Origin: Paragorgia papillata | Lineage: Eukaryota > Cnidaria > Anthozoa > Scleralcyonacea > Coralliidae | Assembly: GCA_035771165.1 (NCBI GenBank) | Contig: JAWNZC010000299.1 | Location: forward strand, 270,001-334,000 | Direction: 5' to 3' | DNA: 64,000 bases | Shown here: one piece after another, positions 30,624-53,936 of the stretch | Position numbering within the stretch: the stretch's first letter is position 1 | Layout: each line of letters starts with the position of its first letter | Translations under genes and position numbers: made by a program | The notes under the pieces: generated by a model | Database searches by the model: none | The model's input: only the letters and a program-made list of their open reading frames with translations | What the model was told of the DNA's origin: nothing

Positions 30624-30667
30624 TTCTCTCTTTTATTATAGTATTTTTTTAAAAACCATAAATCAAT

Positions 30668-32641: not shown

Positions 32642-32667
32642 TTTTTATTTAAACCATTATTTTACAA

Positions 32668-33075: not shown

Positions 33076-33081
33076 GATGCC

Positions 33082-33926: not shown

Positions 33927-33927
33927 G

Positions 33928-34389
33928 ATGAATACTCTACAAATCCTGAACGTCCTGAAAAGTGATCCATTTACCAAGACCGTATTTAAAGACGTGTTAC
34001 CATCGGATCGTCTACCAAGTCAGATACCGAAAAGACCTAGAGGTTTTATTCTGAATGTGGATCCTAGTAATGGACCTGGTACGCATTGGGTAGCAATTTA
34101 TCTCACCTCAGATGGACAAGGGGAGTTCATGGACTCGTACGGACAAGGACCGGGCTTTTATAGCGAATTTTTTGAAACGTTTTTACTAGATCATACTAGC
34201 AGTTTTACTTGGAATGAACAGACTTTACAGTCATTAGGGTCTCGTGTGTGTGGACAATATTGTTTATTTTATGCTTTACATAGATGTAGAAATATACCCA
34301 TATCAACATTTGTTGGCATGTTTACTGATAATAAAGAATGGAATGATATGCTAGTTCGTGACTTTATGCGTAAATATTATTGTGTGTAA
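33928..34389 (+). CDS. Adenain-type maturation protease
   Basis: 153 residues from ATG 33928. The catalytic His is in PGTHWVAIYL (about 54), the acidic partner in GEFMDSYGQGPGF (about 69), and Gln/Cys in LQSLGSRVCGQYCLFYALH (about 105-118). This is the C5 (adenain/Ulp1-like) family protease of adenoviruses and Polintons, which processes pVI-like and core proteins. It lies 2 bp after the MCP stop, so it is probably co-transcribed with MCP. No break is seen. Confidence 0.92.
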   Translation: MNTLQILNVLKSDPFTKTVFKDVLPSDRLPSQIPKRPRGFILNVDPSNGPGTHWVAIYLTSDGQGEFMDSYGQGPGFYSEFFETFLLDHTSSFTWNEQTLQSLGSRVCGQYCLFYALHRCRNIPISTFVGMFTDNKEWNDMLVRDFMRKYYCV

Positions 34390-34458
34390 TAAATACAAGA
34401 CACTTAATATTGTAAAAATATTCTTTATTGTAATATCAAAGCTTTACAAGGAATAAAT

Positions 34459-35184
34459 TTATTTAACCCACTTATATGGATGTATGTTTTTGTCTCTTCG
34501 TTTTGTTCTTTTTGATGTTGCTGGGGCTACCTGTGACGTCAGGGGGGTGGTGTCTGAAATATCATTAGTCTTATATTCTCTTAACATACTCAAACGATTT
34601 TCATTTCTGATAATGCCTTCGGGTACATTCATGTTTCCTAATGCTTTTGTGAAAAGCTGCCATCCAGCAGGGTTGAAATTCTTTCGTTGACACAGAGAAT
34701 CGTTGACCAAGTCAACAACATTTGTACCTGGAATAGGTCGTCCTTTAAACACCATCTGTCCTTCGTCAGTCCACCCAATGAGGTCTTTATTCGCTTTAAG
34801 TTTCTTAACCAACTGTCGAGCTCTTGATTTCATTGTTACGGGTACACTTTCTAAAATGTCAGTTTCTATCTCTGCAGGCAACTCCGAGGGTGCTGTTTCA
34901 GCAGTCTCTTCTGTATTCGCTGGTTCTTCAAGAGTGGGTGTTGTAGGCTGTATGACGCTTACACGTACTGGGCTACTCATTCTTTTATCGTAATAACCCA
35001 GATAACGTTGCAGCGACTGATCGTACATTTTGACTTTCTCGTCTTGTGTTATATCTTGACGTTTAAGAAGATTTTGCATTTCTGAATCTAGTTCATTCAC
35101 CTGCGCTGTTAAAGGAGTGACCAAGGGTTTCTTTCGATCTGTCATATGTTCTGGAACTAGCACCAATCTCCTGACGTGTTTCAT
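34459..35184 (-). CDS. Conserved Polinton protein of unknown function, 241 aa
   Basis: Begins MKHVRRLVLVPEHMTDRKKP with a short coiled coil (VNELDSEMQNLLKRQD), an acidic Pro/Thr-rich linker, then RARQLVKKLKANKDLIGWTD, FKGRPIPGTNVVDLVNDSL and a basic C-terminus (SKRTKRRDKNIHP). Proteins starting RLVLVPE are common in invertebrate Polintons next to the following gene and the ATPase. It is convergent with the protease gene. Function not known; a DNA-binding core protein is possible. Confidence 0.65.
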   Translation of the reverse strand: MKHVRRLVLVPEHMTDRKKPLVTPLTAQVNELDSEMQNLLKRQDITQDEKVKMYDQSLQRYLGYYDKRMSSPVRVSVIQPTTPTLEEPANTEETAETAPSELPAEIETDILESVPVTMKSRARQLVKKLKANKDLIGWTDEGQMVFKGRPIPGTNVVDLVNDSLCQRKNFNPAGWQLFTKALGNMNVPEGIIRNENRLSMLREYKTNDISDTTPLTSQVAPATSKRTKRRDKNIHPYKWVK

Positions 35185-35519
35185 TATTTGGTTAAAAAAC
35201 TTGCCAGTTGTTCAAGTACAGGAGCTAAGAGAAACGGTAGAAAACCTTCACCTTCTTGTAGAATAACTTTCTTTCTTTTTGTTACTGGATGACGTTTATC
35301 AGCAACAAACTTGATATGATCGTTATAAGGGGCTAGTTTCCTTGCTGTTTTCGGAGTAATCTTAATTGTTTCACACCACACGTTCAAAAGACACTGTCTA
35401 ATGGCTTCTAATAAATCGTCGTCGGCAGCTTTTATAATTGCGTTTCGCAGTTGAGGATTACACTTTGCCAATACTTTTAAAACGTCGCAGTTCCTTCTTA
35501 TACAAGCAGACATTGTCAA
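35184..35519 (-). CDS. Conserved small Polinton protein, 111 aa
   Basis: Overlaps the next gene start by one base (TAATG-type overlap at 35184). The helical N-terminus reads VLKVLAKCNPQLRNAIIKAA and LLEAIRQCLLNVW; then KRHPVTKRKKVILQEG and a hydrophobic end GFLPFLLAPVLEQLASFL. The motif KRKK.L...G.GFLP.LLAP.L is widespread in Polinton-derived loci of invertebrates. Role unknown; the tail suggests membrane or capsid association. Confidence 0.65.
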   Translation of the reverse strand: MTMSACIRRNCDVLKVLAKCNPQLRNAIIKAADDDLLEAIRQCLLNVWCETIKITPKTARKLAPYNDHIKFVADKRHPVTKRKKVILQEGEGFLPFLLAPVLEQLASFLTK

Positions 35520-35548
35520 ATGATCGCATTGTAACTGAACAGCCCCTT

Positions 35549-36394
35549 TTATACTCTGGGCTGGTACACGTAGTGGGTGTCAGTCGGAAAGATCCCGGAT
35601 CTTACTCGGATTTCATCGGGACAGGTCGGAGTGAGATCGACAAACAAGTAGGAATATGGTTCTTTAGTCGCCATCTGGTAGGCTTGCTGAAAAAATGTTG
35701 TGTTCCTAGGATACAGTTGCTTGGCAAGATGAACTACTTGACTTGCATCGCGGACATTTTTGGTTAACACGAGATAACTAGCGTTTAGAGAGATGGTACG
35801 GTGATCTTTGCTTTGATGAAATAAGTTTTGCACGATATAAATTACACTGAGATTCCCATGGTGTGATTTTTTAGTAAAAAGTTTAGCGATTATTGCGTCT
35901 TTTTCTCCCATCATATCGTCAATGATAAATAGATTTCTTGTTTGGGGGTTAATGCTATCCAACTTCGATTGGGGCAAACCTTGGAGAAACTGAATCCCTG
36001 GAATTAGGGTTTCTATTTCGCCAAACGTATCTTGATACTCTGTATAAAAATACACGATGTTTTCCGGAGGTGGGTCGATCATAATGCTAGCATAAACCAA
36101 TAACTCTTTGACAAAAGTTGTTTTCCCACTTTTGGTGCCTCCAGAGACCAAGAGTCCAAACGGATGTGTCATTTGTATCGAGTACGTTTTCTGACTCTCA
36201 GGGGTGAATGTAGTTGTCATAGCAGTAAATGGGGCAGATGTTGTTACCCTATCACTGATAAACCTTTTGTGATGAAAAGATCTCATATGGCGTAGACGAT
36301 TACTTGATGTAGCGAATGATTTTTCGCAGACTTCACAAACGTAAGACATGTTCACCCAGTGACTGTCAATCATAAACTGATGTCGCTCTTTCAC
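35549..36394 (-). CDS. C2H2 zinc finger fused to Polinton packaging ATPase
   Basis: 281 residues. A classical C2H2 finger is at 19-42 (YVCEVCEKSFATSSNRLRHM followed by RSFHH). A HerA/FtsK-type ATPase follows: Walker A LLVSGGTKSGKTTFVKELL (about 80-95), Walker B RNLFIIDDMMGEKD (about 150-160) and SVIYIVQNLFHQSKDHRTIS (about 182-198). It packages the element's DNA. An N-terminal finger could confer DNA recognition. The frame is intact here; truncated copies of its first 130 residues lie in both arms of element C. Confidence 0.9.
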   Translation of the reverse strand: MKERHQFMIDSHWVNMSYVCEVCEKSFATSSNRLRHMRSFHHKRFISDRVTTSAPFTAMTTTFTPESQKTYSIQMTHPFGLLVSGGTKSGKTTFVKELLVYASIMIDPPPENIVYFYTEYQDTFGEIETLIPGIQFLQGLPQSKLDSINPQTRNLFIIDDMMGEKDAIIAKLFTKKSHHGNLSVIYIVQNLFHQSKDHRTISLNASYLVLTKNVRDASQVVHLAKQLYPRNTTFFQQAYQMATKEPYSYLFVDLTPTCPDEIRVRSGIFPTDTHYVYQPRV

Positions 36395-36406
36395 GCAACT
36401 GTTTTT

Positions 36407-36605
36407 TATAAGATTGAATCATCGAATCCTAAGACTGAATCATTGAATCCTAAGATTGAATCATCGAATCCTAAGATTGAATCATTGAATCGTAAGATTC
36501 AATCATTGAATCCTAAGATTGAATCATTGAATCATTAAAGCATAATATTGAATCATTGAATCCTAAGATTGAATCATTGAATCATTAAATGCAAGACTGA
36601 ATCCT
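36407..36605. repeat. ATTGAATC tandem array, element A
   Basis: Tandem variants of a roughly 20-bp unit, TTGAATCATTGAATCCTAAG, start right after the ATPase start codon region. The same array, expanded, lies at the equivalent place in both arms of element C. Unit length varies by insertion of extra TTGAATCA words. Confidence 0.9.
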
Positions 36606-36723
36606 AAGGGTTTTATATTCGCCCCGTTTGAATAATACATCATGTACCCTTTCTGATCCCTCAAGGAACCCCATGAAATTCCAATTTTTTATAAAGAGAA
36701 AATATAGAACCTTGAATGTACGC

Positions 36724-36797
36724 GCGAGGGTGGCCGAATGGTTAAGGCGCTGGGTTTAAAGTCCCAGAAGACATGGGTTCGAATCCCACACCTGGCA
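36724..36797 (+). tRNA. tRNA-like gene (UAA-type anticodon loop) in element A
   Basis: 74 nt. The D-arm region is TGGCCGAATGGTTAAGGC, the anticodon stem CTGGG/CCCAG and the T-arm TGGGTTCGAATCCCA. The anticodon loop is TTTAAAGT, 8 nt instead of 7; UAA (Leu) is the simplest anticodon reading. The variable arm is short (class I), unlike true Leu or Ser tRNAs, and the acceptor stem pairs only partly (two mismatches). In this copy the outermost T-stem pair is also lost (A for G). It could be a decayed tRNA captured by the Polinton or a specialised tRNA-like RNA. Confidence 0.6.
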
Positions 36798-37021
36798 ATT
36801 ATTTTTCTTCAAAACAAGACAACAGGTAGTGTTGATAAAAGATGTAATTTCAATTTACAATCACACACAAAATTTTTTAAATTATTTACAGACACGCAAA
36901 GTTAAAAATCTATTTTTAAAATCCATAAGGTAAAGTGTCAAAATTATCTACAATTACTCGTTTGTTATATACAACCCTATAATCTTTACTCTCGCTCCTA
37001 GTTAAAACACTCTTTTCATTT

Positions 37022-40000
37022 CTATCTACCAGGATTCTTCACGATTTGGTTCCGATCCAGCTGAATACCTTTGTTAGCAGCGTAGTCTGCGATGTACTGC
37101 GCCTTCTTCTCGTCTGTGTCGCAATCTACGGGAAAACCACTGGCTTCTTGCTTGATTTTGAGGAACGTATCCACATAATCCTTGAAATGACCGTCGGTGT
37201 GCTCTGGGAAATGCCACACCTCATCGACTTTGACCAAACGGTAGCCTTTTTCCAATGCTTTTTGGAGCTCCAAGGTGGCCCACGTTCCATGCAATGCTCT
37301 GTCGACTTCGAGGTGGTTACAGGTTCCTTGCTGAAGATTGTCAGCGCAGGTTCGACATAGCGGAAACATGAGTTTGCCTTGAGTGCGGTACGGCAGAACG
37401 GGATGGTAGAGGCCGCTAGGAGGAAGAACGGAACATTTCACCAGACCAAAGTACTCGTTGACCGGTTTGAAATTCTCGGTGATTATCTCTGGATGGCCAA
37501 TGGGATACACACCATACTTATTGCACCATGGATAGAGGCTGCAGAAATCCACGTAGTGAACCTTCTCGTCTGGCTGAGTCTGGTAGAAGAGGCGTGTGGC
37601 GTTGGTTCGTCCACCGAAGAAACTTTCTCTTGGTTCTAGGGGTTCGGAGATGTCAAAGTTCTCAAAGAATGCTTTCATGTTTGGGTCGGATTCAAGTTGC
37701 CGTGCGATGTCGCAGGTCCATATTTCCACGACGTTATAGCCGTTGTCTTTTAGGAACTGTACTTTTTCCAGGGTTCTCTGATGAAGTTCGTGCATGGTTA
37801 ATTCATTGACGGGGTTAATGGTATCTCTGGCGTAGCAGCGTTCACAACCATGCCAAATACAGCCTTGAACTTCCCACACCGTGTTCGTTTCGGCGTTGTA
37901 CCCATCGATGAGATATTTGCCGATGCGTTGTTCTCCATGATTGCGAGCGTGTCGAATGGCGATATCATCACGTTGTGCGATGTAAGCAAGCATTTTCAGA
38001 GCGATGACAGACTGTTTGTTTTCTGGTTTGTAACCACATGGCGGGATGACTGCGATAGTGTTCTCCTTAAGGAATGACTTCCTAAACACGAGATTACAGG
38101 CGGAGGCGATGGTCAGGCAAGAGGCGAACGGATCAATGTCAGTGACTTCACGGAAGAGTTCGCGAAACTCCAAACAACAGCGACGAAGGATGTTAACATC
38201 CGACTGGCAGTAGCGCAGGATTTCGGCTTGAAAGTCGAAGACATACTCTTGATTCTGAAGCTCGTTGTACCACACGTAAAACTTCTCTCGATCACCAGGA
38301 CTCGTACCATCAGGATCGTAGAATTTGGCTTCAGGAAGGGGTCCAACATAGTCTTGGTTCTCGGCGCGGTTAAAAAAATGTGGAAAGTAGCCTTTCTGGA
38401 GTTCGGTTATACCAAACGTTTTTGGGAAGTTGGCCAAACGCATTGGAATAAAACATAACGAGTCTATAAACTTGATATTCCTTTCTGGCACGGAGAGAGA
38501 CAAGATTTTGGCACCGCGGGTAATCACTTCAGGGACGATACCGTTCTTGTACAAGTACTGAAGGATAAAGTACCCATCATACGCCTGAAAATTGTGCGCG
38601 ATGAACGTAGTATTGGCGTTCTCCTTGAAGAGCCATTCGCAGAATTCCTCCTTGGTGTTTGGACCAGAAAACACGATCTCATCACCGCTTTCGTTCTGGA
38701 CCACGCAGAGATTGGGAATGTGTTGTCCGTCGTCTTGTGTACATTCGAACTCGAAGAACATTAAGGTCTGGTCTCTTTCGTCGCCACCATTCTCACCGTC
38801 CACAGCGACTTCATCGTGAAGAAACTCGTTACTGGTACTTTCTTGGGCAGGTTGTCGGTTCCTCTCAACTATGGGCTGAATATAGCACTGGTGGTTGTCA
38901 GGTTTCACGTATTTTTGGCAAACGGAGCAGCGCACTAGGCCATAATGATGACCATGGATGCTGGCGCTTGTCACGACGCGTTGGCACTTTTTGCATTTTG
39001 TCAGGGAACTACAGAGGGCTTTCTTGTTGTCGGTGGTTTCTTTGTGGCGGGCAAAGCAGTCGTCGCTCTTAAAAAATCGGTTACAGTCTTGGCAGTACTT
39101 CCACTTGACCACGGGACAGTTCTGTGTATTGCACAGTTTACACAAATCGCCACATGGGTGGTCGGTGATCTTGTCGTACCCTTTTTTACAAGTGTGACAG
39201 TATTGCTTTCGAGCGAGGAAGGCAGGCATACTCGTGATGACATCGTAGTGGTTGTCGTGGTGGTAGAGGTAAAGGTGTTTGTCGGCTTCGGGACCCGAAT
39301 AAATAATAGCGTTCAAATGTTCCTTGGAGACGACGTTGATTTGGTAACCAGGGAGGACAGCTTGGAACTTCTTGACTTCGGGGATCCCACAGGAATCAAA
39401 GGGGACACCAGCGTTTTCGTGGAGTTCGCGGGCTAAATGCGCCTGAAGAGATGTCCCTGGTTTTCGGATAGACTCGTACTGGGGGTCTTTATCCAATTTT
39501 GCCTTCGCAACCACGATAGCTCGTGCACAACAAAGTTCATCTTTGTTTTTAATCTGAATGAAACAACGTTTTTTGTTGAGATAGCTTTGTAAGTTGACCA
39601 CATTTCGCTTTCGACCGGTTCCACCTTGAGGCATTTCGACGTGGACGACGTTGACGTTGACTGACTCGTCCAAGGTAAACTGTGTATTGGACTGTACAAC
39701 TCTCTCTACTGTGGCCAGCAAACGCTCGGGAGTTAGGCGGTCTCGGGAAAGGAAAGGCAAGGAAATAGGTCGGTCTAGCTGGTGGGAGTTAAGGATGAGA
39801 CGGACTTGATCATGAGGGGACATGTCATCAGTTAAACGATCGAACAAATGCTTAAAAGCACGGTTTAATACTGACATAACATCAGATACTCCATGTATAC
39901 TTAAATCGCAAAACTGAACAGTATAGTCAGTACCTGTGGTTTTGAATTTCCTGACGTTCACTTGTCTGACCGATTTGATCGTAAAATACTCCTCGGGTTT

Positions 40001-40480
40001 CAGGCGCTTCGGAGTAGACTCGGTGTCGTCGCCGCGCTTTCTCTTGCTCCCTTCGCCCACTTGGTTCTCCATAGGTTCGTCCATGGCGGAATCGACTTGT
40101 TCGGCTTCCTCGTCTGGACACAAGAACTCGTTATTGGCCCAATCCTCGTTGAATTGGCGCCGTTCTTCGTCGGACCAGTTAACCATCATTTCGGGTACAA
40201 CATCTGCTGGTGTTTCGATCTCCCGTTGAAGATCATCGGCCATAGCGTTCGTCCAAAAAATAATTTTCTGCTGTAAAACAGCCCGTTTCTGCTCCTCAGT
40301 GAGCACAAACGACTCTTCGAGAAACTCTAGAGCACTCTCACTCTCACAAGCCTTAATCAGGTCAATCATATCAATCTAGAAACATAAGAGGGAAATTCGT
40401 AAATACACACTCAAGTTTCCATTCGAATATAAAACAAATCAAATATAACGTTCAAAGCATAAACTTACCGTTTGAGACAT
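37022..40480 (-). pseudogene. Element A protein-primed DNA polymerase B, spliced, 3' part deleted
   Basis: Exon 1 is 12 nt (MSQT, 40480-40469) with donor GTAAGT; exon 2 starts at 40375 after TTTCTAG. 1115 codons follow the ATG at 40369. A Cys/His domain (NKDELCCARAIVVAKAK ... LYLYHHDNHYDVITS, about 275-385) precedes a cluster of CxxC fingers (about 390-500). Exonuclease motifs are FFEFECTQ (about 538; the usual first Asp is Glu, GAG at 38750-38752), FIAHNFQAYDGYF and YCQSDVNIL. Motif A is VDFCSLYPWCN (about 941). After NQIVKNPG an internal deletion jumps to the last codons (NEKSVLTR...NFDTLPYGF at 37019-36916), removing motifs B and C. It is therefore defective. Confidence 0.92.
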
Positions 40481-40944
40481 ATTAATCATTACCAAAATAG
40501 AGAATAAATTCCAAAGAACACTTTCCACAACACTTTCCAAAGACTTTCGATGTTACTCGTAAGAGAACAGAATTCAAATGAAACGACGCGATGCTGTACA
40601 TTCTCTATGGTTACAGCACTGATCGCCCAAACACGTCTCATTGTTTTATTCTTTAATGACCTTTTAATGATCTCCTAATGAGATTTTACACATGGCTTAT
40701 GCAAATATCAATCTTAGTAACAGAAACCGTAGCAACGCTTTCAAAGTAATAAATCGCTTTGCCTTTATATTCAGACATTTAAACTGTTCAAAACTCTCTA
40801 TTCCTCCAGACAAGGTTTCAGATAAAAAATATAAAGTGTCTCTATCAATTTCTCTTTAGTTCCTTGGAAAGAACGTCTATTTTCTTAAATTTTACTGTAC
40901 GCATGCTCTGTACACCTACAGGTCCCACAACTGTTTGACTATCA
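40481..40944 (-). pseudogene. Decayed Bcl-2-like copy and PolB leader region at the right end of element A
   Basis: By order and residual identity this segment corresponds to the Bcl-2-like gene plus flank at the left end of A and in element C (for example the ACCATAGAGAAT...ACAGC...CGTCGTTTCAT block upstream of PolB and the GATATTTGCATA block). The reading frame is lost. It shows that both ends of A once carried this gene. Confidence 0.65.
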
Positions 40945-41419
40945 GTAGGGTAAAGTGTATAAATTAAAAGCTAATTACTATTACTTGTAAGTAAGTCCAG
41001 TGCCTTTTGATAATGGCGAACTTCGGAAATCAGTCGGAGAGCTATCGGTTATGACGTATTTGCACGGGGGGTTGGATAAAAGCTAGGGTCTAGGGGGAAA
41101 GTTAGGGTTACTACGTCCCAAAGGAGCTTGAGAAGTAATGACGTATGTATAAATAATAGTCGGTTATGACATAATAAAAACCAGGGGATTGAGTAACAGT
41201 TAGGGTTTAGGGGGAAGTTAGGGTTACTACGTCCCAAAGGAGCCTGAGAAATAACGACGCATAAATAATGATATTAGGGTTAGGGTGTCCTGAAGGAGTC
41301 TGAGAAATAATGAGGTTAGGGTTAAGAGGTCTCAAAGGAGCCTGAGATTGAATAAATAAAAAATTGAATAATTAATGAGGCGGCATCCCATTCATCCCTA
41401 TATGGGGGGTATTACTTCT
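40945..41419. repeat. Element A right terminal inverted repeat
   Basis: The reverse complement matches 18492-18870 closely over the outer 250 bp. Two copies of a roughly 110-bp unit with GGGGGAAAGTTAGGGTTACT and GTCCCAAAGGAGC give it extra length. It contains TTAGGGTTAGGG at about 41274. It ends ...GTATTACTTCT before TCCGTG. Confidence 0.85.
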
Positions 41420-41953: not shown

Positions 41954-42350
41954 CAGTGGCGTCATGGCCAGGGGGGACCGTGGCGCCCCCTAATGTCGTT
42001 CAACACAGTTTTGTCGGAATTGGGGCATAAGCTTTTCGCGGTTAGTAGTGATACCCCCCCATATAGACTACAAAGGGATGCCGCCTCATTAAATATTCAT
42101 TTTTTATTTATTCATTCTCAGGCTCCTTTGGGACCCTCTAACCCTAATCTCATTATTTCTCAGGCTCCTTTGGGACATAGTAACCCTAACTTCCCCCTAA
42201 ACCCTAGTTGTTACTCAATCCCCGGTTTTTATTACGTTATAACCGACTATTTATGCATACGTCATCACAACCGACAGCTCTCCGAGTATTTTGGCACTCC
42301 ACTTATATAAGTAATAGTAACCAACTTTCATTTATACACTTTACCCAAAA

Positions 42351-42760
42351 ATGGATATTATTTACGACGAACTAAGGAAAAATAACATTGGCATCGATAA
42401 AGACACTTTATCGTTTCATATCAATACATGTCTAGAAGAACATCAAATATTGTTCAACAGTCTAAGCGGTCAAACAAATAGACTAAGTCTTCAACAGGTT
42501 TATAATGAAATGAGTCTTAACAACTTTGGTCGAATTATCGCTTATCTAACTCTAGTGTATAGAGTAAACGAATCCTTGGACGAAGAAACAGTTCGAGAAG
42601 GCGTGGAAGAACGAGCAATGATTTCAAATGTATTGACTTGTCTAAATACAGACGAAATGTTACTTTATCCCGATGGCTTGGTTCACTGTTTTTCATGCTG
42701 ATATTTGCATACTTCCATGTGGAAAAACTCGTTAGGAGATCATTAAAAACTCATTAAGAA
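42351..42760 (+). pseudogene. Bcl-2-like gene, element C left arm (frameshifted)
   Basis: Starts MDIIYDELRKNNIGIDKD. The BH1-like block NNFGRIIAYLTLVYRVNE is present. A frameshift at about 42605 changes the C-terminal third (the right-arm copy at 53181-53588 is open and ends with SRWLGSLFFMLIFAYFHVE). The position just inside the TIR is the same as in element A. Confidence 0.5.
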
Positions 42761-42922
42761 ATAATACAAAAGAACATGTTTGGGCAACCAGAGGTGTTAC
42801 CATAGAGAAAGTACAGCGTCGCGTCGTTTCATTCGAATTCTGTTCTCTTACGAGTAACGTCGAAAGTCTTTTGGAGTGTGTTTTGGAAAGTGTTTTTGGA
42901 TTTATTCTTGGCAGTGATTAAA

Positions 42923-45339
42923 ATGTCTCAAACGGTAAGCTTGTGTTTTGAACATTTATGAAACGTTTGGTCGAATAAAACTAGGCTGTATATTTACAAA
43001 TTTCTCATCTGTTTCCAGATTGATATGATTGACCTCATCAAGTCTTGCGAGACTGAGAGTGCTCTCGAGTTTCTCGAAGAATCGTTTGTGCTCACTGAGG
43101 AGCAGAAACGGTCTGTTTTACAGCAGAAGATTGTCTTCTGGACGAACGCTATGGCTAACGAGCTTCAGTGCGAGATCGAAACACCAGCAGGTGTTGTACC
43201 CGAATTGATGACTAACTGGTCCGACGAAGAACGGCGCCAATTCAACGAAGATTGGAACAACGACGAGTTCTTGGTTCCAGTCGACGACACCGAACAACCT
43301 GAGATCCCTGAACCGATCGAAAGCCAAGTTGGTGAAGGCAGCAAGCGAAAACGTGTCGACGATACCGAGTTTACTCCTAAGCACCTAAAACCTGATGATT
43401 ACTTCACGATCAAGTCTGTCAAGCAAGTCAACGTCCGAAAGTTCAAGACCACAGGTAAAGACTATACTGTACAGTTTTTACCTTTAAATATACATGGGGT
43501 TTCTGATGTTATGTCAGTGTTGAACAGTGCTTTTAAGCACTTATTTGATCGGTTAACCACCGATATGGCTCCTCACGATCAAGTTCGTTTGATCATGAGT
43601 TCCCACCAGTTAGACCGTCCCATTTCCTTGCCTTTCCTTCAACGAGACCGCCTAACTCCCGAGCGTTTCCTGGCCGCAGTGGAACGTGTCGTCCAATCGA
43701 ATACACAGTTTACGTTGGATGAAACCGTCAACGTCAACGTAGTTCACGTCGAGATGCCTCAAGGTGGTGCGGGAAAACGGCGAGATGTAGTCAACCTACA
43801 GAGTTACCTCGACAAGAAACGATGTCTTCTCCAGATCAAGAACAAAGACGAACTGTGTTGTGCTCGTGCGATCGTGGTTGCCAAGGTGAAGTTGGACAAA
43901 AGTCTACCATTCAAAAGTATCGTTGCTCCTCGAGGAACACTTCAAGGTCGTTTGGCCCGCGAACTCCACGAGGCCGCAGGTGTTCCCCTTGGTCCCTGTG
44001 GGATCCCCGAGGTCAAGAGGTTCCAAGCTGTCCTCCCTGGTTACCAGCTCAATGTGGTTTCCAAGGAACACTTGAATGCCCTAATTTATTCTGGTCCCGA
44101 AGCCGATAAATGTTTGTACCTTTACCACCACGACAACCACTACGACGTGATTACGAGCATGCCTGCCTTCCTTGCCAGGAAACAATACTGCCATACGTGC
44201 AAGAAGGGCTACGACAAGATCACCGACCATCCGTGTGGCGATCTCTGCAAACTGTGTCATATACAGAACTGCCCAATGGTCCAGTGGAAATACTGCAAGG
44301 ACTGCAATCGGTTCTTTAAGAGCGACGAATGCTTTGCCCGCCACAAAGCCTCTACCGACAACAAGAAAGCCCTATGTTCTTCGCTCACCAAGTGCCAGAA
44401 ATGTCAACGTGTCGTCACCCGAGCCAGTTTCAACGATCATCATTGTGGCCTAGTGCGATGTTCAGTTTGCACCAAGTACGTTAAACCAGAGAACCACCAA
44501 TGTTACATTCAGCCTATCGGCCAAAAGAAACAGCGACAAGCCAACGAAAGCACAAATAATGAGTTTCTTGACGATGATGTCGCAGTGGACAACGACGTCG
44601 CAGAGCGCAGCGACCAGAATCTGATGTTTTTCGATTTTGAATGCACCCAAGATAACGGCCAACACGTCCCAAACCTCTGCGTGGTCCAGAACGAGAGTGG
44701 CGACGAGTTCGTGTTTTCCGGTCCCAATACCAAAGACGAGTTCTGCAACTGGCTCTTTCAGATTGAGAACGCCAACACCACCTTCATCGCCCATAACTTC
44801 CAGGCATACGACGGTTACTTTATCCTTCAGTACTTGTACAAGAACGGTGTAACTCCTGAGGTGATTACTCGAGGTGCAAAGATCCTTTCTCTCTTCGTGT
44901 CAGAGTTAAAAATTAAGTTCATCGACTCGCTCTGCTTTATCCCTATGCGTCTGGCTGATTTCCCCAAGACGTTTGGTCTCACTGAGCTACAGAAAGGTTA
45001 CTTTCCCCACTTCTTCAATCGCGCCGAGAACCAGAGCTACGTGGGACCACTACCTGACGCTAAGTGCTATGATCCAGATGGTATGAGCCCCAGTGATCGC
45101 GAGAAATTTCACGTATGGTACAACGATCTTGCCAATCAAGATTATGTCTTCGACTTCCAAGCCGAAATCCTGCGTTACTGCCAGTCTGACGTCGACATCC
45201 TTCGTCGCTGTTGCCTTGAATTACGTGAACTGTTTCGTGATGTGACCGATGTGGACCCCTTCGCCTCTTGCCTCACTATCGCCTCCGCTTGCAATCTTGT
45301 TTTTCGCAAAACATTCCTGAAGGAAAACACTATCGCCAA
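42923..45339 (+). pseudogene. PolB 5' half, element C left arm
   Basis: Exon 1 is MSQT (42923-42934), the intron is GTAAGC...TTTCCAG, and exon 2 starts at 43019. The Cys/His domain, CxxC fingers and exonuclease motifs are intact, with FFDFECTQ keeping the catalytic Asp that element A has lost; then FIAHNFQAYDGYF and YCQSDVDIL. After LVFRKTFLKENTIA it is joined at a 4-bp TCGC overlap to inverted ATPase sequence; the ORF runs on to 45420 in antisense ATPase codons. All polymerase motifs are missing. Confidence 0.9.
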
Positions 45340-45709
45340 ACGTATCTTGATACTCTGTATAAAAATACACGATGTTTTCCGGAGGTGGGTCGATCATAAT
45401 GCTAGCATAAACCAATAACTCTTTGACAAAAGTTGTTTTCCCACTTTTGGTGCCTCCAGAGACCAAGAGTCCAAACGGATGTGTCATTTGTATCGAGTAC
45501 GTTTTCTGACTCTCGGGGGTGAATGTAGTTGTCATAGCAGTAAATGGGGCAGATGTTGTTACCCTATCACTGATAGACCTTTTGTGATGAAAAGATCTCA
45601 TATGGCGTAGACGATTACTTGATGTAGCGAATGATTTTTCGCAGACTTCACAAACGTAAGACATGTTCACCCAGTGACTGTCAATCATAAACTGATGTCG
45701 CTCTTTCAC
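45334..45709 (-). pseudogene. Packaging ATPase 5' fragment, element C left arm
   Basis: Carries the C2H2 finger and Walker A (SGGTKSGKTTF) up to EYQDTFG, where the PolB junction begins. The Walker B half is missing. About 97% identical to the element A gene in the shared part. Confidence 0.9.
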
Positions 45710-45723
45710 GCAACTGTTTTTTA

Positions 45724-46474
45724 TAAGATTGAATCATCGAATCCTAAGACTGAATCATTGAATCCTAAGATTGAATCATCGAATCCTAAGATTGAATCAT
45801 TGAATCATTGAATCCTAAGATTGAATCATTGAATCCTAACATTGAATCATTGAATCCTAACATTGAATTATTGAATCATTAAAGCATAAGATTGAATAAT
45901 TGAATCCTAAGATTGAATCATTGAATCCTAAGATTGAATCATTGAATCCTAAGATTGAATCATCGAATCCTAAGATTTAATCATTGAATCATTGAATCAT
46001 TGAATCATTGAATCCTAAGATTGAATCATTGAATCCTAACATTGAATCATTGAATCCTAACATTGAATCATTGAATCATTAAAGCATAAGATTGAATCAT
46101 TGAATCCTAAGATTGAATCATTGAATCCTAAGATTGAATCATTGAATCCTAAGATTGAATCATTGAATCATTGAATCATTGAATCATTGAATCATTGAAT
46201 CATTGAATCCTAAGATTGAATCATTGAATCCTAAGATTGAATCATTGAATCCTAACATTGAATCATTGAATCATTAAAGCATAAGATTGAATCATTGAAT
46301 CCTAAGATTGAATCATTGAATCCTAAGATTGAATCATCGAATCCTAAGATTTAATCATTGAATCATTGAATCCTAAGATTGAATTATTGAATCCTAAGAT
46401 TGAATCATTGAATCGTAAGATTGAATCATTGAATCCTAAGATTGAATCATTGAATCATTAAATCCAAGACTGAA
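45724..46474. repeat. Expanded ATTGAATC array, element C left arm
   Basis: About 750 bp of variants of TTGAATCATTGAATCCTAAG, with higher-order units ending CATTAAAGCATAAGATTGAA. It is longer than in element A (about 200 bp) and than in the right arm (about 580 bp), so copy number has drifted after the palindrome formed. Confidence 0.92.
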
Positions 46475-46596
46475 TCCTAAGGGTTTTATATTCGCCCCGT
46501 TTGAATAATACATCATGTACCCTTTCTGATCCCTCAAGGAACCCCATGAAATTCCAATTTTTTATAAAGAGAAAATATAGAACCTTGAATGTACGC

Positions 46597-46670
46597 GCGA
46601 GGGTGGCCGAATGGTTAAGGCGCTGGGTTTAAAGTCCCAGAAGACGTGGGTTCGAATCCCACACCTGGCA
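46597..46670 (+). tRNA. tRNA-like gene, element C left arm
   Basis: 74 nt with the same D-arm, CTGGG/CCCAG anticodon stem, 8-nt loop TTTAAAGT and T-arm GTGGGTTCGAATCCCAC (a full 5-bp T-stem here). The 5' end GCGAGGG pairs only partly with ACCTGGC. Confidence 0.6.
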
Positions 46671-46788
46671 ATTATTTTTCTTCAAAACAAGACAACAGGT
46701 AGTGTTGATAAAAGATGTAATTTCAATTTACAATCACACACAAAATTTTTAAAATTATTTACAGACACGCAAAGTTAAAAATCTATTT

Positions 46789-47031
46789 TTAAAATCCATA
46801 AGGTAAAGTGTCAAAATTATCTACAATTACTCGTTTGTTATATACAACCCTATAATCTTTACTCTCCCCCCTAGTGAGCACATTCTTTTCATTTCTATCT
46901 CGTACAATCTTAAATGGAATATTTACAGAAACTGGATCAGCTACATCACACATTGTACTTAGATACACCATATCACACATAACATCAAAAGGAGGAAAAA
47001 GGGGGTTAGGCGAATGCGAAAATGTATACAT
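46789..47031 (-). pseudogene. PolB C-terminal fragment, element C left arm
   Basis: Encodes FDVMCDMVYLSTMCDVADP, IPFKIVRDRNEKNVLTRGES and ends VDNFDTLPYGF. The last 34 codons are the same as the stub after the deletion in element A PolB, and this copy shows what precedes them. The first 15 codons come from other sequence. Confidence 0.75.
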
Positions 47032-47218
47032 TTTTAGGCGGAAACATGGTAACGAGGCTTATGCGCTTAGCGTCGCTTGGATGCACGCATACATTAACAA
47101 GACATGGATTAAATTTCTTTTATTTCGATAATTAACAGGCTTACAGTGACAGCTATAATATTACAATTAGCCTACAAATGTTCTTAAATATATTGTTCGA
47201 TAAATAATATAACGTTTT

Positions 47219-47611
47219 TTAGGTTAGCCACTTCTTAAATATATCGTCTCCTTCTTCCTCTCCGAAGCAAATCGTTGTCTTCGTATTTGATTTTGCCTTC
47301 TTAATGGAAGATTTGGGCATTCTCTGCTTCTGTCTCTTATTAATTAAAACTGCCTTCCCTCTTAGAAAATTATTAAACTGTTTCGCCATTTCCTCTTGCC
47401 GTTGTATTAACCATTCTAAAGTTGTTCCCATGCTGTCGTTTGCTGGGTTATAGTCATCCAACGGGACACATATTCCAATTTTACCCCACTTTAACCATTT
47501 AGCGCGTTCTTTCATATCCATACCATGTACTTGGTCGAGATGATTTGCTAGTCTTGCGAGATTAGTGCTTCCACAACCAAAAACAGGACAGTTTCTTCGT
47601 GTACGACCCAT
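47219..47611 (-). CDS. C2H2 zinc-finger protein, element C left arm
   Basis: 130 residues: RRNCPVFGCGSTNLARLANH and LDQVHGMDMKERAKWLKWG form one C2H2 finger with a trailing helix (C..(4)C...H....H). The middle is IQRQEEMAKQFNNFLRGK and the Lys-rich part QRMPKSSIKKAKSNTK is a likely nuclear signal. The NCPV.GC....L.RL.NHL..VH pattern recurs in cnidarian and Polinton-associated loci. The right-arm copy differs at a few residues (MKERA/MEERA, LEWLI/LERLI). Probably DNA-binding. Confidence 0.65.
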   Translation of the reverse strand: MGRTRRNCPVFGCGSTNLARLANHLDQVHGMDMKERAKWLKWGKIGICVPLDDYNPANDSMGTTLEWLIQRQEEMAKQFNNFLRGKAVLINKRQKQRMPKSSIKKAKSNTKTTICFGEEEGDDIFKKWLT

Positions 47612-48017
47612 AACGCAAGTAGCTCTTTACTCCACCGAAGTCTAGGAGTTTTTAATGTTTTCTTGCATTGCAGAACTTATTATTTGACCCGTTTAGGCCC
47701 GAAATGGCCTTTTTTGGCCCGAATGGGCCTTTTGGCCCGATAGCTACTAGGCGTCCTTCGCCTGGGCAAGCCCAGGCAAACCTGGGCGAACACCGCGGTT
47801 GCTCTTGTGACGTCACAATGAAAAGTGATTAGCTTGCAAAATCGCGCGTTAAGTTAAGCGTTTCTCGCAACTTTTTCTCATTCTGTGTAACAACTTCGAA
47901 CTGTTAACATCTCTTGGGAAATATCTTACTGTACTTAGCAATATGCAAGCTTTAGGCCTTTTTTCTCGTCGTGCCATTCTTGGTCGTTCGAACAAGAGCA
48001 CTGTAGTTCTGGAGAAG
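47612..48017. other. Element C inner left arm with GGCC-rich inverted words
   Basis: Contains GGCCCGAAATGGCC, GGCCCGAATGGGCC and GGCCCGATAG in series at about 47695-47745, then CTGGGCAAGCCCAGG and GCCTGGGCAAGC palindromes near 47760-47790. No ORF except the start of a 79-codon frame crossing the centre. It may be promoter or replication-related DNA of the parent Polinton. Confidence 0.5.
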
Positions 48018-48099
48018 ATTGCAAAAGCGAATTCTCTAAACAAGACTGGTGCTGTTAACTTTAACAAGTACGGGAAGCAAGACAACATCGGTTTTACGT
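48018..48099. other. Unpaired 82-nt centre of the element C palindrome
   Basis: The left arm ends GTAGTTCTGGAGAAG and the right arm starts CTTCTCCAGAACTAC; only the 82 nt between them are not inverted. A 79-codon ORF (47943-48182) crosses it but its second half is the inverted arm read in antisense, so it is not a normal gene. Confidence 0.8.
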
Positions 48100-48505
48100 C
48101 TTCTCCAGAACTACAGTGCTCTTGTTCGAACGACCAAGAATGGCACGACGAGAAAAAAGGCCTAAAGCTTGCATATTGCTAAGTACAGTAAGATATTTCC
48201 CAAGAGATGTTAACAGTTCGAAGTTGTTACACAGAATGAGAAAAAGTTGCGAGAAACGCTTAACTTAACGCGCGATTTTGCAAGCTAATCACTTTTCATT
48301 GTGACGTCACAAGAGCAACCGCGGTGTTCGCCCAGGTTTGCCTGGGCTTGCCCAGGCGAAGGACGCCTAGTAGCTATCGGGCCAAAAGGCCCATTCGGGC
48401 CAAAAAAGGCCATTTCGGGCCTAAACGGGTCAAATAATAAGTTCTGCAATGCAAGAAAACATTAAAAACTCCTAGACTTCGGTGGAGTAAAGAGCTACTT
48501 GCGTT
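48100..48505. other. Element C inner right arm
   Basis: An inverted copy of 47612-48017, including the GGCC-rich words (about 48375-48425). Nothing else is coding. Confidence 0.6.
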
Positions 48506-48898
48506 ATGGGTCGTACACGAAGAAACTGTCCTGTTTTTGGTTGTGGAAGCACTAATCTCGCAAGACTAGCAAATCATCTCGACCAAGTACATGGTATGGA
48601 TATGGAAGAACGCGCTAAATGGTTAAAGTGGGGTAAAATTGGAATATGTGTCCCGTTGGATGACTATAACCCAGCAAACGACAGCATGGGAACAACTTTA
48701 GAACGGTTAATACAACGGCAAGAGGAAATGGCGAAACAGTTTAATAATTTTCTAAGAGGGAAGGCAGTTTTAATTAATAAGAGACAGAAGCAGAGAATGC
48801 CCAAATCTTCCATTAAGAAAGCAAAATCAAATACGAAGACAACGATTTGCTTCGGAGAGGAAGAAGGAGACGATATATTTAAGAAGTGGCTAACCTAA
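48506..48898 (+). CDS. C2H2 zinc-finger protein, element C right arm
   Basis: The inverted copy of the left-arm gene, 130 residues, open. It has the same finger (NCPVFGCGSTNLARLANHLD) and Lys-rich tail. Confidence 0.65.
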   Translation: MGRTRRNCPVFGCGSTNLARLANHLDQVHGMDMEERAKWLKWGKIGICVPLDDYNPANDSMGTTLERLIQRQEEMAKQFNNFLRGKAVLINKRQKQRMPKSSIKKAKSNTKTTICFGEEEGDDIFKKWLT

Positions 48899-49085
48899 AA
48901 AACGTTATATTATTTATCGAACAATATATTTAAGAACATTTGTAGGCTAATTGTAATATTATAGCTGTCACTGTAAGCCTGTTAATTATCGAAATAAAAG
49001 AAATTTAATCCATGTCTTGCTAATGTATGCGTGCATCCAAGCGACGCTAAGCGCATAAGCCTCGTTACCATGTTTCCGCCTAAAA

Positions 49086-49328
49086 ATGTATACATTTTCG
49101 CATTCGCCTAACCCCCTTTTTCCTCCTTTTGATGTTATGTGTGATATGGTGTATCTAAGTACAATGTGTGATGTAGCTGATCCAGTTTCTGTAAATATTC
49201 CATTTAAGATTGTACGAGATAGAAATGAAAAGAATGTGCTCACTAGGGGGGAGAGTAAAGATTATAGGGTTGTATATAACAAACGAGTAATTGTAGATAA
49301 TTTTGACACTTTACCTTATGGATTTTAA
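49086..49328 (+). pseudogene. PolB C-terminal fragment, element C right arm
   Basis: An identical 80-codon inverted copy of the left-arm fragment, ending VDNFDTLPYGF. Confidence 0.75.
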
Positions 49329-49446
49329 AAATAGATTTTTAACTTTGCGTGTCTGTAAATAATTTTAAAAATTTTGTGTGTGATTGTAAATTGAAATTAC
49401 ATCTTTTATCAACACTACCTGTTGTCTTGTTTTGAAGAAAAATAAT

Positions 49447-49520
49447 TGCCAGGTGTGGGATTCGAACCCACGTCTTCTGGGACTTTAAACCCAGAGCCTT
49501 AACCATTCGGCCACCCTAGT
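49447..49520 (-). tRNA. tRNA-like gene, element C right arm
   Basis: The third copy. It has the same anticodon stem, 8-nt loop and T-arm; the acceptor 5' strand is ACTAGGG instead of GCGAGGG and GGCGC becomes GGCTC after the D-arm. Changes are concentrated in the acceptor stem, the loop is unchanged. Confidence 0.6.
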
Positions 49521-49646
49521 GCGTACATTCAAGGTTCTATATTTTCTCTTTATAAAAAATTGGAATTTCATGGGGTTCCTTGAGGGATCAGAAAGGGTAC
49601 ATGATGTATTACTCAAACGGGGCGAATATAAAACCCTTAGGATTCA

Positions 49647-50227
49647 GTCTTGGATTTAATGATTCAATGATTCAATCTTAGGATTCAATGATTCAATCTT
49701 ATGATTCAATGATTCAATCTTAGGATTCAATGATTCAATCTTAGGATTCAATGATTCAATGATTAAATCTTAGGATTCGATGATTCAATCTTAGGATTCA
49801 ATGATTCAATGTTAGGATTCAATGATTCAATCTTAGGATTCAATGATTCAATCTTATGCTTTAATGATTCAATGATTCAATGTTAGGATTCAATGATTCA
49901 ATCTTAGGATTCAATGATTCAATCTTAGGATTCAATGATTCAATGATTCAATGATTCAATGATTAAATCTTAGGATTCGATGATTCAATCTTAGGATTCA
50001 ATGATTCAATCTTAGGATTCAATGATTCAATCTTAGGATTCAATGATTCAATCTTATGCTTTAATGATTCAATGATTCAATGTTAGGATTCAATGATTCA
50101 ATGTTAGGATTCAATGATTCAATCTTAGGATTCAATGATTCAATGATTCAATGATTCAATCTTAGGATTCGATGATTCAATCTTAGGATTCAATGATTCA
50201 GTCTTAGGATTCGATGATTCAATCTTA
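49647..50227. repeat. ATTGAATC array, element C right arm
   Basis: The reverse-complement array (TTAGGATTCAATGATTCAA units), about 580 bp, with the same higher-order units as the left arm but fewer copies. Confidence 0.92.
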
Positions 50228-50241
50228 TAAAAAACAGTTGC

Positions 50242-50621
50242 GTGAAAGAGCGACATCAGTTTATGATTGACAGTCACTGGGTGAACATGTCTTACGTTTG
50301 TGAAGTCTGCGAAAAATCATTCGCTACATCAAGTAATCGTCTACGCCATATGAGATCTTTTCATCACAAAAGGTCTATCAGTGATAGGGTAACAACATCT
50401 GCCCCATTTACTGCTATGACAACTACATTCACCCCCGAGAGTCAGAAAACGTACTCGATACAAATGACACATCCGTTTGGACTCTTGGTCTCTGGAGGCA
50501 CCAAAAGTGGGAAAACAACTTTTGTCAAAGAGTTATTGGTTTATGCTAGCATTATGATCGACCCACCTCCGGAAAACATCGTGTATTTTTATACAGAGTA
50601 TCAAGATACGTTTGGCGATAG
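50242..50621 (+). pseudogene. Packaging ATPase 5' fragment, element C right arm
   Basis: C2H2 finger and Walker A up to TEYQDTFG, then the same TCGC junction into antisense PolB. The ORF continues to 50883 through PolB antisense codons and is not a real extension. Confidence 0.9.
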
Positions 50622-53015
50622 TGTTTTCCTTCAGGAATGTTTTGCGAGAAACAAGATTGCAAGCGGAGGCGATAGTGAGGCAAGAGGTCCACATCGGTCA
50701 CATCACGAAACAGTTCACGGAATTCAAGGCAACAGCGACGAAGGATGTCGACGTCAGACTGGCAGTAACGCAGGATTTCGGCTTGGAAGTCGAAGACATA
50801 ATCTTGATTGGCAAGATCGTTGTACCATACGTGAAATTTCTCGCGATCACTGGGGCTCATACCATCTGGATCATAGCACTTAGCGTCAGGTAGCGGTCCC
50901 ACGTAGCTCTGGTTCTCGGCGCGATTGAAGAAGTGGGGAAAGTAACCTTTCTGTAGGTCAGTGAGGCTAAACGTCTTGGGGAAATCAGCCAGACGCATAG
51001 GGATAAAGCAGAGCGAGTCGATGAACTTAATTTTTAACTCTGACACGAAGAGAGAAAGGATCTTTGCACCTCGAGTAATCACCTCAGGAGTTACACCGTT
51101 CTTGTACAAGTACTGAAGGATAAAGTAACCGTCGTATGCCTGGAAGTTATGGGCGATGAAGGTGGTGTTGGCGTTCTCAATCTGAAAGAGCCAGTTGCAG
51201 AACTCGTCTTTGGTATTGGGACCGGAAAACACGAACTCGTCGCCACTCTCGTTCTGGACCACGCAGAGGTTTGGGACGTGTTGGCCGTTATCTTGGGTGC
51301 ATTCAAAATCGAAAAACATCAGATTCTGGTCGCTGCGCTCTGCGACGTCGTTGTCCACTGCGACATCATCGTCAAGAAACTCATTATTTGTGCTTTCGTT
51401 GGCTTGTCGCTGTTTCTTTTGGCCGATAGGCTGAATGTAACATTGGTGGTTCTCTGGTTTAACGTACTTGGTGCAAACTGAACATCGCACTAGGCCACAA
51501 TGATGATCGTTGAAACTGGCTCGGGTGACGACACGTTGACATTTCTGGCACTTGGTGAGCGAAGAACATAGGGCTTTCTTGTTGTCGGTAGAGGCTTTGT
51601 GGCGGGCAAAGCATTCGTCGCTCTTAAAGAACCGATTGCAGTCCTTGCAGTATTTCCACTGGACCATTGGGCAGTTCTGTATATGACACAGTTTGCAGAG
51701 ATCGCCACACGGATGGTCGGTGATCTTGTCGTAGCCCTTCTTGCACGTATGGCAGTATTGTTTCCTGGCAAGGAAGGCAGGCATGCTCGTAATCACGTCG
51801 TAGTGGTTGTCGTGGTGGTAAAGGTACAAACCATTTATCGGCTTCGGGACCAGAATAAATTAGGGCATTCAAGTGTTCCTTGGAAACCACATTGAGCTGG
51901 TAACCAGGGAGGACAGCTTGGAACCTCTTGACCTCGGGGATCCCACAGGGACCAAGGGGAACACCTGCGGCCTCGTGGAGTTCGCGGGCCAAACGACCTT
52001 GAAGTGTTCCTCGAGGAGCAACGATACTTTTGAATGGTGGACTTTTGTCCAACTTCACCTTGGCAACCACGATCGCACGAGCACAACACAGTTCGTCTTT
52101 GTTCTTGATCTGGAGAAGACATCGTTTCTTGTCGAGGTAACTCTGTAGGTTGACTACATCTCGCCGTTTTCCCGCACCACCTTGAGGCATCTCGACGTGA
52201 ACTACGTTGACGTTGACGGTTTCATCCAACGTAAACTGTGTATTCGATTGGACGACACGTTCCACTGCGGCCAGGAAACGCTCGGGAATTAGGCGGTCTC
52301 GTTGAAGGAAAGGCAAGGAAATGGGACGGTCTAACTGGTGGGAACTCATGATCAAACGAACTTGATCGTGAGGAGCCATATCGGTGGTTAACCGATCAAA
52401 TAAGTGCTTAAAAGCACTGTTCAACACTGACATAACATCAGAAACCCCATGTATATTTAAAGGTAAAAACTGTACAGTATAGTCTTTACCTGTGGTCTTG
52501 AACTTTCGGACGTTGACTTGCTTGACAGACTTGATCGTGAAGTAATCATCAGGTTTTAGGCGCTTAGGAGTAGACTCGGTATCGTCGACACGTTTTCGCT
52601 TGCTGCCTTCACCAACTTGGCTTTCGATCGGTTCAGGGATCTCAGGTTGTTCGGTGTCGTCGACTGGAACCAAGAACTCGTCGTTGTTCCAATCTTCGTT
52701 GAATTGGCGCCGTTCTTCGTCGGACCAGTTAGTCATCAATTCGGGTACAACACCTGCTGGTGTTTCGATCTCGCACTGAAGCTCGTTAGCGTTCGTCCAG
52801 AAGACAATCTTCTGCTGTAAAACAGACCGTTTCTGCTCCTCAGTGAGCACAAACGATTCTTCGAGAAACTCGAGAGCACTCTCAGTCTCGCAAGACTTGA
52901 TGAGGTCAATCATATCAATCTGGAAACATATGAGAAATTTGTAAATATACAGCCTAGTTTTATTCGACCAAACGTTTCATAAATGTTCAAAACACAAGCT
53001 TACCGTTTGAGACAT
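50617..53015 (-). pseudogene. PolB 5' half, element C right arm (frameshifted)
   Basis: Exon 1 MSQT is at 53015-53004; the main frame runs from 52913. Compared with the left arm it lacks two codons near 52790 (WTNANELQ against WTNAMANELQ). A frameshift at about 51830 follows EADKW; the remaining frame resumes at 51829 (MYLYHHDNHYDVITS). FFDFECTQ is kept. A second frame change near 50690 disturbs the last codons (DVDLLPHYRLR). It ends at the same junction with ATPase. Confidence 0.88.
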
Positions 53016-53180
53016 TTTAATCACTGCCAAGAATAAATCCAAAAACACTTTCCAAAACACACTCCAAAAGACTTTCGACGTTACTCGTAAGAGAACAGAA
53101 TTCGAATGAAACGACGCGACGCTGTACTTTCTCTATGGTAACACCTCTGGTTGCCCAAACATGTTCTTTTGTATTATTTC

Positions 53181-53588
53181 TTAATGAGTTTTTAATGATC
53201 TCCTAACGAGTTTTTCCACATGGAAGTATGCAAATATCAGCATGAAAAACAGTGAACCAAGCCATCGGGATAAAGTAACATTTCGTCTGTATTTAGACAA
53301 GTCAATACATTTGAAATCATTGCTCGTTCTTCTCACGCCTTCTCGAACTGTTTCTTCGTCCAAGGATTCGTTTACTCTATACACTAGAGTTAGATAAGCG
53401 ATAATTCGACCAAAGTTGTTAAGACTCATTTCATTATAAACCTGTTGAAGACTTAGTCTATTTGTTTGACCGCTTAGACTGTTGAACAATATTTGATGTT
53501 CTTCTAGACATGTATTGATATGAAACGATAAAGTGTCTTTATCGATGCCAATGTTATTTTTCCTTAGTTCGTCGTAAATAATATCCAT
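53181..53588 (-). CDS. Bcl-2-like protein, element C right arm, open (135 aa)
   Basis: MDIIYDELRKNNIGIDKDTL, the BH1-like NNFGRIIAYLTLVYRVNE, EETVREGVRRTSNDF and the hydrophobic end SRWLGSLFFMLIFAYF. It is the intact version of the frameshifted left-arm copy and about 60% identical to the element A protein. The same caveat applies: the Bcl-2 link rests on the BH1-like motif, helical content and tail. Confidence 0.5.
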   Translation of the reverse strand: MDIIYDELRKNNIGIDKDTLSFHINTCLEEHQILFNSLSGQTNRLSLQQVYNEMSLNNFGRIIAYLTLVYRVNESLDEETVREGVRRTSNDFKCIDLSKYRRNVTLSRWLGSLFFMLIFAYFHVEKLVRRSLKTH

Positions 53589-53936
53589 TTTTGGGTAAAG
53601 TGTATAAATGAAAGTTGGTTACTATTACTTATATAAGTGGAGTGCCAAAATACTCGGAGAGCTGTCGGTTGTGATGACGTATGCATAAATAGTCGGTTAT
53701 AACGTAATAAAAACCGGGGATTGAGTAACAACTAGGGTTTAGGGGGAAGTTAGGGTTACTATGTCCCAAAGGAGCCTGAGAAATAATGAGATTAGGGTTA
53801 GAGGGTCCCAAAGGAGCCTGAGAATGAATAAATAAAAAATGAATATTTAATGAGGCGGCATCCCTTTGTAGTCTATATGGGGGGGGGGGGGGGTATCACT
53901 ACTGCGGTTTCTGGTCATGTCTATCACTTTTGAGTT

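What the first reader, a model, noticed from the sequence alone, without database searches (positions are those of the whole stretch)
42044..53903. Giant palindromic Polinton derivative resembling a defective-interfering genome, integrated with a clean TSD
Element C is two head-to-head copies of one rearranged Polinton end, joined by only 82 nt, with Polinton termini at both outer ends and an exact 6-bp TSD GCGGTT. Each arm carries the same internal junction (PolB joined to inverted ATPase at a TCGC overlap), so the arm was rearranged first and then duplicated by a hairpin or template-switch event. Protein-primed linear genomes (adenoviruses, linear plasmids) are known to yield such terminal palindromes as defective genomes. 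That a palindromic one was integrated like a normal Polinton would be new to me. Arms differ by substitutions and array length, which argues against a simple assembly duplicate.
Basis: partly seen in the sequence, partly recalled or inferred. Interest (0 to 1): 0.88.

Follow-up and report, generated by a model that had tools for sequence, protein, structure and literature searches.

The report
Palindromic, chimeric Polinton with target-site duplication
A 12-kb virus-like jumping element looks as if it was copied into a mirror image of one of its own rearranged ends and then inserted into the host chromosome like a normal element, which would be a rare fossil of defective genomes made while such elements copy themselves outside the chromosome.

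Summary
The palindrome is confirmed. Element C (42044-53903) has arms of 5,975 and 5,805 nt around an 80-nt centre. It ends in AGTAGT termini and is flanked by an exact 6-bp duplication, GCGGTT. Two neighbouring Polintons have terminal repeats of only about 200 bp.

(1) In the PolB fragment the arms differ at 2 silent and 8 replacement sites, as expected without selection; PolB against neighbour B shows 300 silent and 176 replacement differences (dN/dS 0.08). So the arms look like one sequence that diverged after PolB lost function. (2) Each arm is a chimera: TIR, Bcl-2/E1B-19K-like ORF and PolB are 78-88% identical to B, but the inverted ATPase/tRNA-like block matches B at 774 of 778 positions (left arm, minisatellite excluded). 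(3) B's own PolB also lacks motifs B and C.

Best reading: a snap-back defective genome, made by template switching between two related Polintons during linear replication, then integrated by an integrase supplied in trans. Formation inside the chromosome is not excluded. No reads, host genome or relatives could be reached: one locus, no independent copy.

The parts
42038..42043 (.). target-site duplication GCGGTT, left copy
42044..42346 (+). left terminus and TIR-like region (AGTAGTGATACCCC...), 246/281 identical to B's left end
42351..42701 (+). 116-aa Bcl-2/E1B-19K-like ORF, open in left arm (Pfam Adeno_E1B_19K E=0.00098 and Bcl-2 E=0.011, both below the curated cut-offs)
42699..42711 (+). 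junction J1: 13-bp motif TGATATTTGCATA shared by B's left end, B's right end and both arms
43025..45336 (+). 5' part of the PolB gene (no motif A, B or C), open frame in left arm, 1857/2273 identical to B
45333..45336 (+). junction J2: 4-bp TCGC overlap, PolB joined to inverted ATPase
45337..45723 (-). N-terminal part of packaging-ATPase gene, inverted, 385/387 identical to B
45724..46463 (.). 21-bp minisatellite (TAAGATTGAATCATTGAATCC), longer in left arm than in right
46597..46670 (+). tRNA-like gene, anticodon undetermined (Rfam tRNA 53.6 bits)
46864..46900 (+). junction J3 zone: identity to B falls from 774/778 to 31/37, then ends
46901..48018 (+). inner part of left arm with no significant match in the neighbouring Polintons (best E of its ORFs 0.026); contains 128-aa ORF 47222-47605 (-) and the start of an ORF running into the centre
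48019..48098 (.). 80-nt non-palindromic centre (fold-back junction J4)
48099..53903 (-). right arm: inverted copy of 42044-48018, with a PolB frame broken by a 1-nt insertion and an 8-nt deletion and a Bcl-2-like frame changed by a 1-nt insertion
53904..53909 (.). target-site duplication GCGGTT, right copy
18492..41419 (.). neighbouring Polinton B (yardstick and near relative of the chunk donor); its PolB 37022-40369 (-) ends KNPGR* before motifs B and C

Best explanation
Element C is an integrated snap-back (palindromic) defective Polinton genome. Shown in the sequence: both outer ends are the same Polinton terminus, the whole unit lies in one 6-bp target duplication, and the two arms carry the same internal junctions and look descended from one sequence. 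Inferred: Polintons copy themselves as linear DNA by protein priming. During such replication, in a cell holding two related lineages, the nascent strand switched template (PolB of lineage C to inverted ATPase block of a B-like element at TCGC, then back within a homologous stretch). It then folded back about 6 kb from the end and copied its own strand outward, giving a molecule with an identical origin and integrase site at each end. An integrase supplied in trans inserted it like a normal Polinton. Since then both arms have decayed without constraint.
For: Arms about 6 kb against TIRs of about 200 bp in A and B. AGTAGT termini and exact 6-bp TSD GCGGTT with unlike flanks. Both arms share the J1 motif, J2 and the block up to J3. 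In the PolB fragment, 2 silent and 8 replacement differences between arms: neutral expectation 27.6% silent, P=0.74; different from the lineage pattern 300:176, Fisher P=0.008. Chimerism: PolB 1857/2273 against chunk 774/778 identical to B in the left arm; right arm 767/775. Over the outer 965 bp the right end copies the left without a substitution, apart from poly-C length and one 1-nt indel. None of the five C ORFs scanned with Pfam has an integrase core, no arm ORF matched B's integrase at E up to 1, and no PolB motif A, B or C lies in C, so it would need help in trans.
Against: One locus only; no reads, no second copy and no host-genome search could be had. Rearrangement in the chromosome could give the same product. 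The arm-difference test rests on 10 sites. The source of 46901-48098 is unknown. The outer 965 bp carry no substitutions (P=0.02 under uniform spread, judged after the fact), which could mean later exchange between arms.
Confidence: 0.6

Rival explanations
1. Formation in place: an ordinary C-type Polinton was inserted at GCGGTT; later a broken fork or break repair inside the chromosome copied one half over the other through the terminal repeats, using nearby B as one template.
For: B lies only 624 bp away (41419 to 42044) and its block 36022-36990 has the same orientation as the left-arm chunk and 774/778 identity. TIRs give a place to rejoin the right flank.
Against: Needs two template jumps, a fold-back and a return exactly at the terminus. 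B's own two ends differ within the first 200 columns (5 of 199 aligned positions and one gap), so an original right end of such a family should leave traces, while C's ends have no substitution between them over 965 bp. Whether C's family had unequal ends is not known.
Confidence: 0.18
2. Assembly artefact: haplotypes or repeats were joined into a false palindrome.
For: Palindromes and 99% repeats are classic assembly traps; no reads were available.
Against: Flanks differ and begin exactly at the Polinton terminus with an exact TSD (chance about 0.0003). Arms differ at 19 of 5,235 sites, 14 of them transitions, and by array length. The block repeated in B and C ends sharply at TCGC, which a misjoin inside a repeat would not produce.
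Confidence: 0.12
3. A stable non-autonomous palindromic (foldback-type) Polinton family with many copies, of which this is one.
For: The structure looks like a usable integrase substrate; it could have spread after it formed (inference).
Against: No other copy in the 64-kb window (matches of 80 nt or more); the genome could not be searched.
Confidence: 0.07
4. End-to-end joining of two different broken Polinton copies.
For: An 80-nt offset at the centre is compatible with two ends broken at different places.
Against: Both arms share the same junctions, and their differences look unconstrained rather than inherited from two working parents (10 sites).
Confidence: 0.03

Closest known systems
Polinton/Maverick (adintovirus-type) elements
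   Same: AGT-repeat termini and 6-bp TSDs, as given for vertebrate Mavericks in passages of PMC8097293; PolB and ATPase sequences; neighbour B has an integrase with chromodomain, named in passages of PMC11071296 as an adintovirus trait
   Different: C has no integrase or capsid hit among the ORFs scanned, a PolB cut before its polymerase motifs, and arms about 30 times longer than the TIRs of A and B
Palindromic or snap-back defective genomes of protein-primed linear replicons (adenoviruses, yeast linear plasmids; recalled, not from a call)
   Same: inverted doubling of one end, short asymmetric centre, loss of replication genes, two copies of one origin
   Different: integrated in a chromosome with a target duplication; helper dependence and interference untested; the arm joins two lineages
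Foldback-type transposons with giant TIRs (recalled)
   Same: long inverted arms, little coding capacity
   Different: ends, TSD length and contents are Polinton's

Membership tests
Polinton/Maverick | AGT-repeat termini and exact 6-bp TSD | tested here: met
   AGTAGT at both ends, GCGGTT twice
Polinton/Maverick | complete protein-primed PolB gene | tested here: not met
   only a fragment; no motif A, B or C in C. C is therefore filed as a derivative, not as a full Polinton
Polinton/Maverick | retrovirus-type integrase | tested here: not met
   none in the five C ORFs scanned, no arm ORF of 35 aa or more matched B's integrase; B has rve plus chromo at 20308-21387
Polinton/Maverick | capsid genes | tested here: inconclusive
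   no capsid match in the C ORFs scanned; capsids are often missed by sequence
snap-back defective genome | inverted duplication of one genome end around a short asymmetric centre | tested here: met
snap-back defective genome | lacks genes needed to replicate alone, keeps cis ends | tested here: met
snap-back defective genome | replicated by a helper and interferes with it | not testable with these tools
   needs cells
snap-back defective genome | arms derive from a single molecule | tested here: inconclusive
   favoured by shared junctions and unconstrained divergence (10 sites), not proved

The most novel reading that the evidence does not exclude
Polintons of this animal-like genome throw off defective genomes of both classic classes during extrachromosomal, protein-primed replication: a snap-back one (C, chimeric between two co-replicating lineages) and an internally deleted one (B, PolB cut before motifs B and C). 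Their integrase inserts such genomes in trans, so chromosomes keep a fossil record of Polinton replication and co-infection.
Probability: 0.35. Interest if true: 0.82.

Novelty: new variant of a known kind. Interest (0 to 1): 0.64.

Why it matters
As far as I know (recalled), protein-primed linear replication of Polintons is inferred from gene content. A palindromic derivative with two identical ends, inserted with a normal target duplication, is the kind of by-product expected from that replication and would be indirect physical evidence for it. It would also suggest that integrase acts in trans on defective genomes and that different Polinton lineages recombine in one cell. The idea can be tested directly by searching host genomes for other palindromes with other target duplications.

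Tried and rejected
Simple assembly duplicate: disfavoured by TSD, flanks and arm differences, but not excluded without reads. Two different parents joined: disfavoured. Chunk taken from an undeleted B-like element rather than B itself: considered because the arm continues past B's junction, but the last 37 bp (31/37 identical) look like a crossover into another lineage, so B itself remains possible. Relatives: PolB and integrase gave no relative in viral contigs, the PolB alignment none in genome contigs, PolB none in phages; three PolB-type proteins matched no NCBIfam family. The structure of the Bcl-2-like ORF was too poor to use (mean pLDDT 49.5), so no fold search was made. Solved-structure searches of four proteins gave nothing. 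TIR-based dating of B was dropped: B's ends differ at 5 of 199 aligned positions in the first 200 columns and more inside, while its integrase, ATPase and PolB ORFs are open, so the difference may predate insertion. The first whole-arm alignment counts 32 substitutions; 9 of them fall in the forced alignment of the centre and 4 in the minisatellite, and these are left out of the 19.

Full report
What is there. The window holds three Polinton-type elements. A (23167-33075) has an exact TSD GATGCC and lies nested inside B (18492-41419; TSD ACCGTG/TCCGTG, 5 of 6). C (42044-53903) has TSD GCGGTT. C is an inverted duplication: left arm 5,975 nt, centre 80 nt, right arm 5,805 nt. TIRs of A and B keep high identity for only about 190-220 bp before falling apart, so C's arms are about 30 times longer than a terminal repeat of its neighbours.

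Anatomy of one arm, from outside to inside. First a TIR-like region and a small ORF with weak Bcl-2/E1B-19K similarity (below the curated Pfam cut-offs); both resemble B's left end. At a 13-bp motif found exactly four times in the window the arm switches to sequence like B's right end: PolB with its upstream sequence. PolB stops at about B codon 772, before motif A. At TCGC (45333-45336) an inverted block follows: ATPase N-terminus, minisatellite, tRNA-like gene. From 46864 identity to B drops, and from 46901 there is no significant match to B or A (best ORF E-value 0.026; no blastn match). A reading frame that starts in the arm runs on into the 80-nt centre.

Two lineages in one arm. Against B, the TIR is 246/281, the Bcl-2-like ORF 259/334, PolB upstream 250/293 and PolB 1857/2273 identical, while the ATPase and tRNA blocks are 774/778 identical in the left arm and 767/775 in the right. 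PolB has dN 0.105 and dS 1.31 (one of four quarters saturated, so dS is rough). Such a contrast within one arm is hard to explain without recombination between diverged Polintons. The 37 bp at the inner edge of the block are 31/37 identical, close to the lineage distance (Fisher P=1e-6 against the rest), which suggests the return crossover lies near 46863.

When the arms parted. Outside the minisatellite the arms differ at 19 of 5,235 positions, 14 of them transitions. In the PolB coding fragment 2 differences are silent and 8 replace an amino acid; random mutation predicts 27.6% silent (P=0.74), and the pattern differs from the lineage comparison, 300 silent and 176 replacement (Fisher P=0.008). 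Numbers are small, but they suggest that the arms diverged after PolB ceased to be selected. With B as outgroup, changes in the PolB region fall on both arms (4 left, 4 right, 3 unresolved); in the chunk, minisatellite included, 2 left, 4 right, 4 unresolved. The right arm carries frame-changing indels in PolB and in the Bcl-2-like ORF. The outer 965 bp hold no substitution (P=0.02, chosen after seeing the data); later exchange between arms is possible.

B is damaged too. B's PolB has motif A (37540), but a six-frame scan of the window finds DTDS only in A, and the two matches to the motif-B pattern also lie in A, one of them among stops. B's PolB ends KNPGR* at 37022, at the inner edge of the B-C homology (37027). 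The motif names are recalled. Whether B lost this part before or after insertion cannot be told.

How it most likely works. Inferred: linear protein-primed replication, template switching between two related genomes, fold-back near 48019-48098, copying out to the end, integration in trans. Shown: the product, its termini, TSD, shared junctions, chimerism and divergence without visible constraint. Not excluded: formation in the chromosome with B, 624 bp away, as donor.

Literature. 'polinton' with 'palindrom' gave 44 papers, of which I saw 20 listed with abstract starts; none of those 20 is about a palindromic Polinton by title. 'Polinton', 'Maverick', 'defective' and 'terminal inverted repeats' gave 12, all listed. 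'polinton' with 'head-to-head' gave 4, all listed. 'adintovirus' gave 29, 12 listed. In the main texts of PMC8097293, PMC11071296, PMC6431247 and PMC12721341 the term search counts 'palindrom' 0 times; I saw passages of these four, not the whole texts. In the passages seen, PMC8097293 uses 'defective' for degraded Maverick copies, for instance with PolB broken by stop codons or frameshifts. Within these searches of this library I found no report of an integrated palindromic Polinton; 24 of the 44 papers were not looked at. Palindromic defective genomes of adenoviruses and linear plasmids are recalled; three searches aimed at them listed nothing I used, and I opened none of their papers.

Limits. 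One locus, host unnamed, no reads, no genome search, no protein database.

Noticed in passing
23167-33075: Element A: Polinton-type element nested in B with exact TSD GATGCC and a TIR of about 190 bp; PolB-like ORF with an endonuclease VII domain and a stop right after TDTDSLC, an A32-like ATPase, a PriCT-2 primase-type domain; no integrase core in the six ORFs of A that were scanned.
   Followed up: partly
37022-40369 (-): B's PolB is open for 1115 codons but lacks motifs B and C and ends where homology to the C arms ends: looks like an internally deleted Polinton.
   Followed up: partly
36724-36797, 46597-46670, 49447-49520: tRNA-like gene with undetermined anticodon beside a 21-bp minisatellite inside B and both arms of C.
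   Followed up: no
19242, 40698, 42699, 53227: 13-bp motif TGATATTTGCATA (contains the octamer ATTTGCAT): upstream of PolB at B's right end, after the Bcl-2-like ORF at B's left end, and in both arms; 4 exact copies against 0.01 expected.
   Followed up: partly
41420-41990 and 60518-61714 (-): GIY-YIG-like sequence between B and C (by eye in the ORFs) and a 398-aa ORF with weak GIY-YIG similarity (E=0.0051, below cut-off), perhaps Penelope-type retroelement remnants (name recalled).
   Followed up: no
9834-12518 (+): open 894-aa hAT-type transposase ORF (DUF4371 and hAT dimerisation domain).
   Followed up: no
57435-57959, 285-579: two small inverted repeats with 97-nt and 86-nt arms, outside the Polintons.
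   Followed up: no
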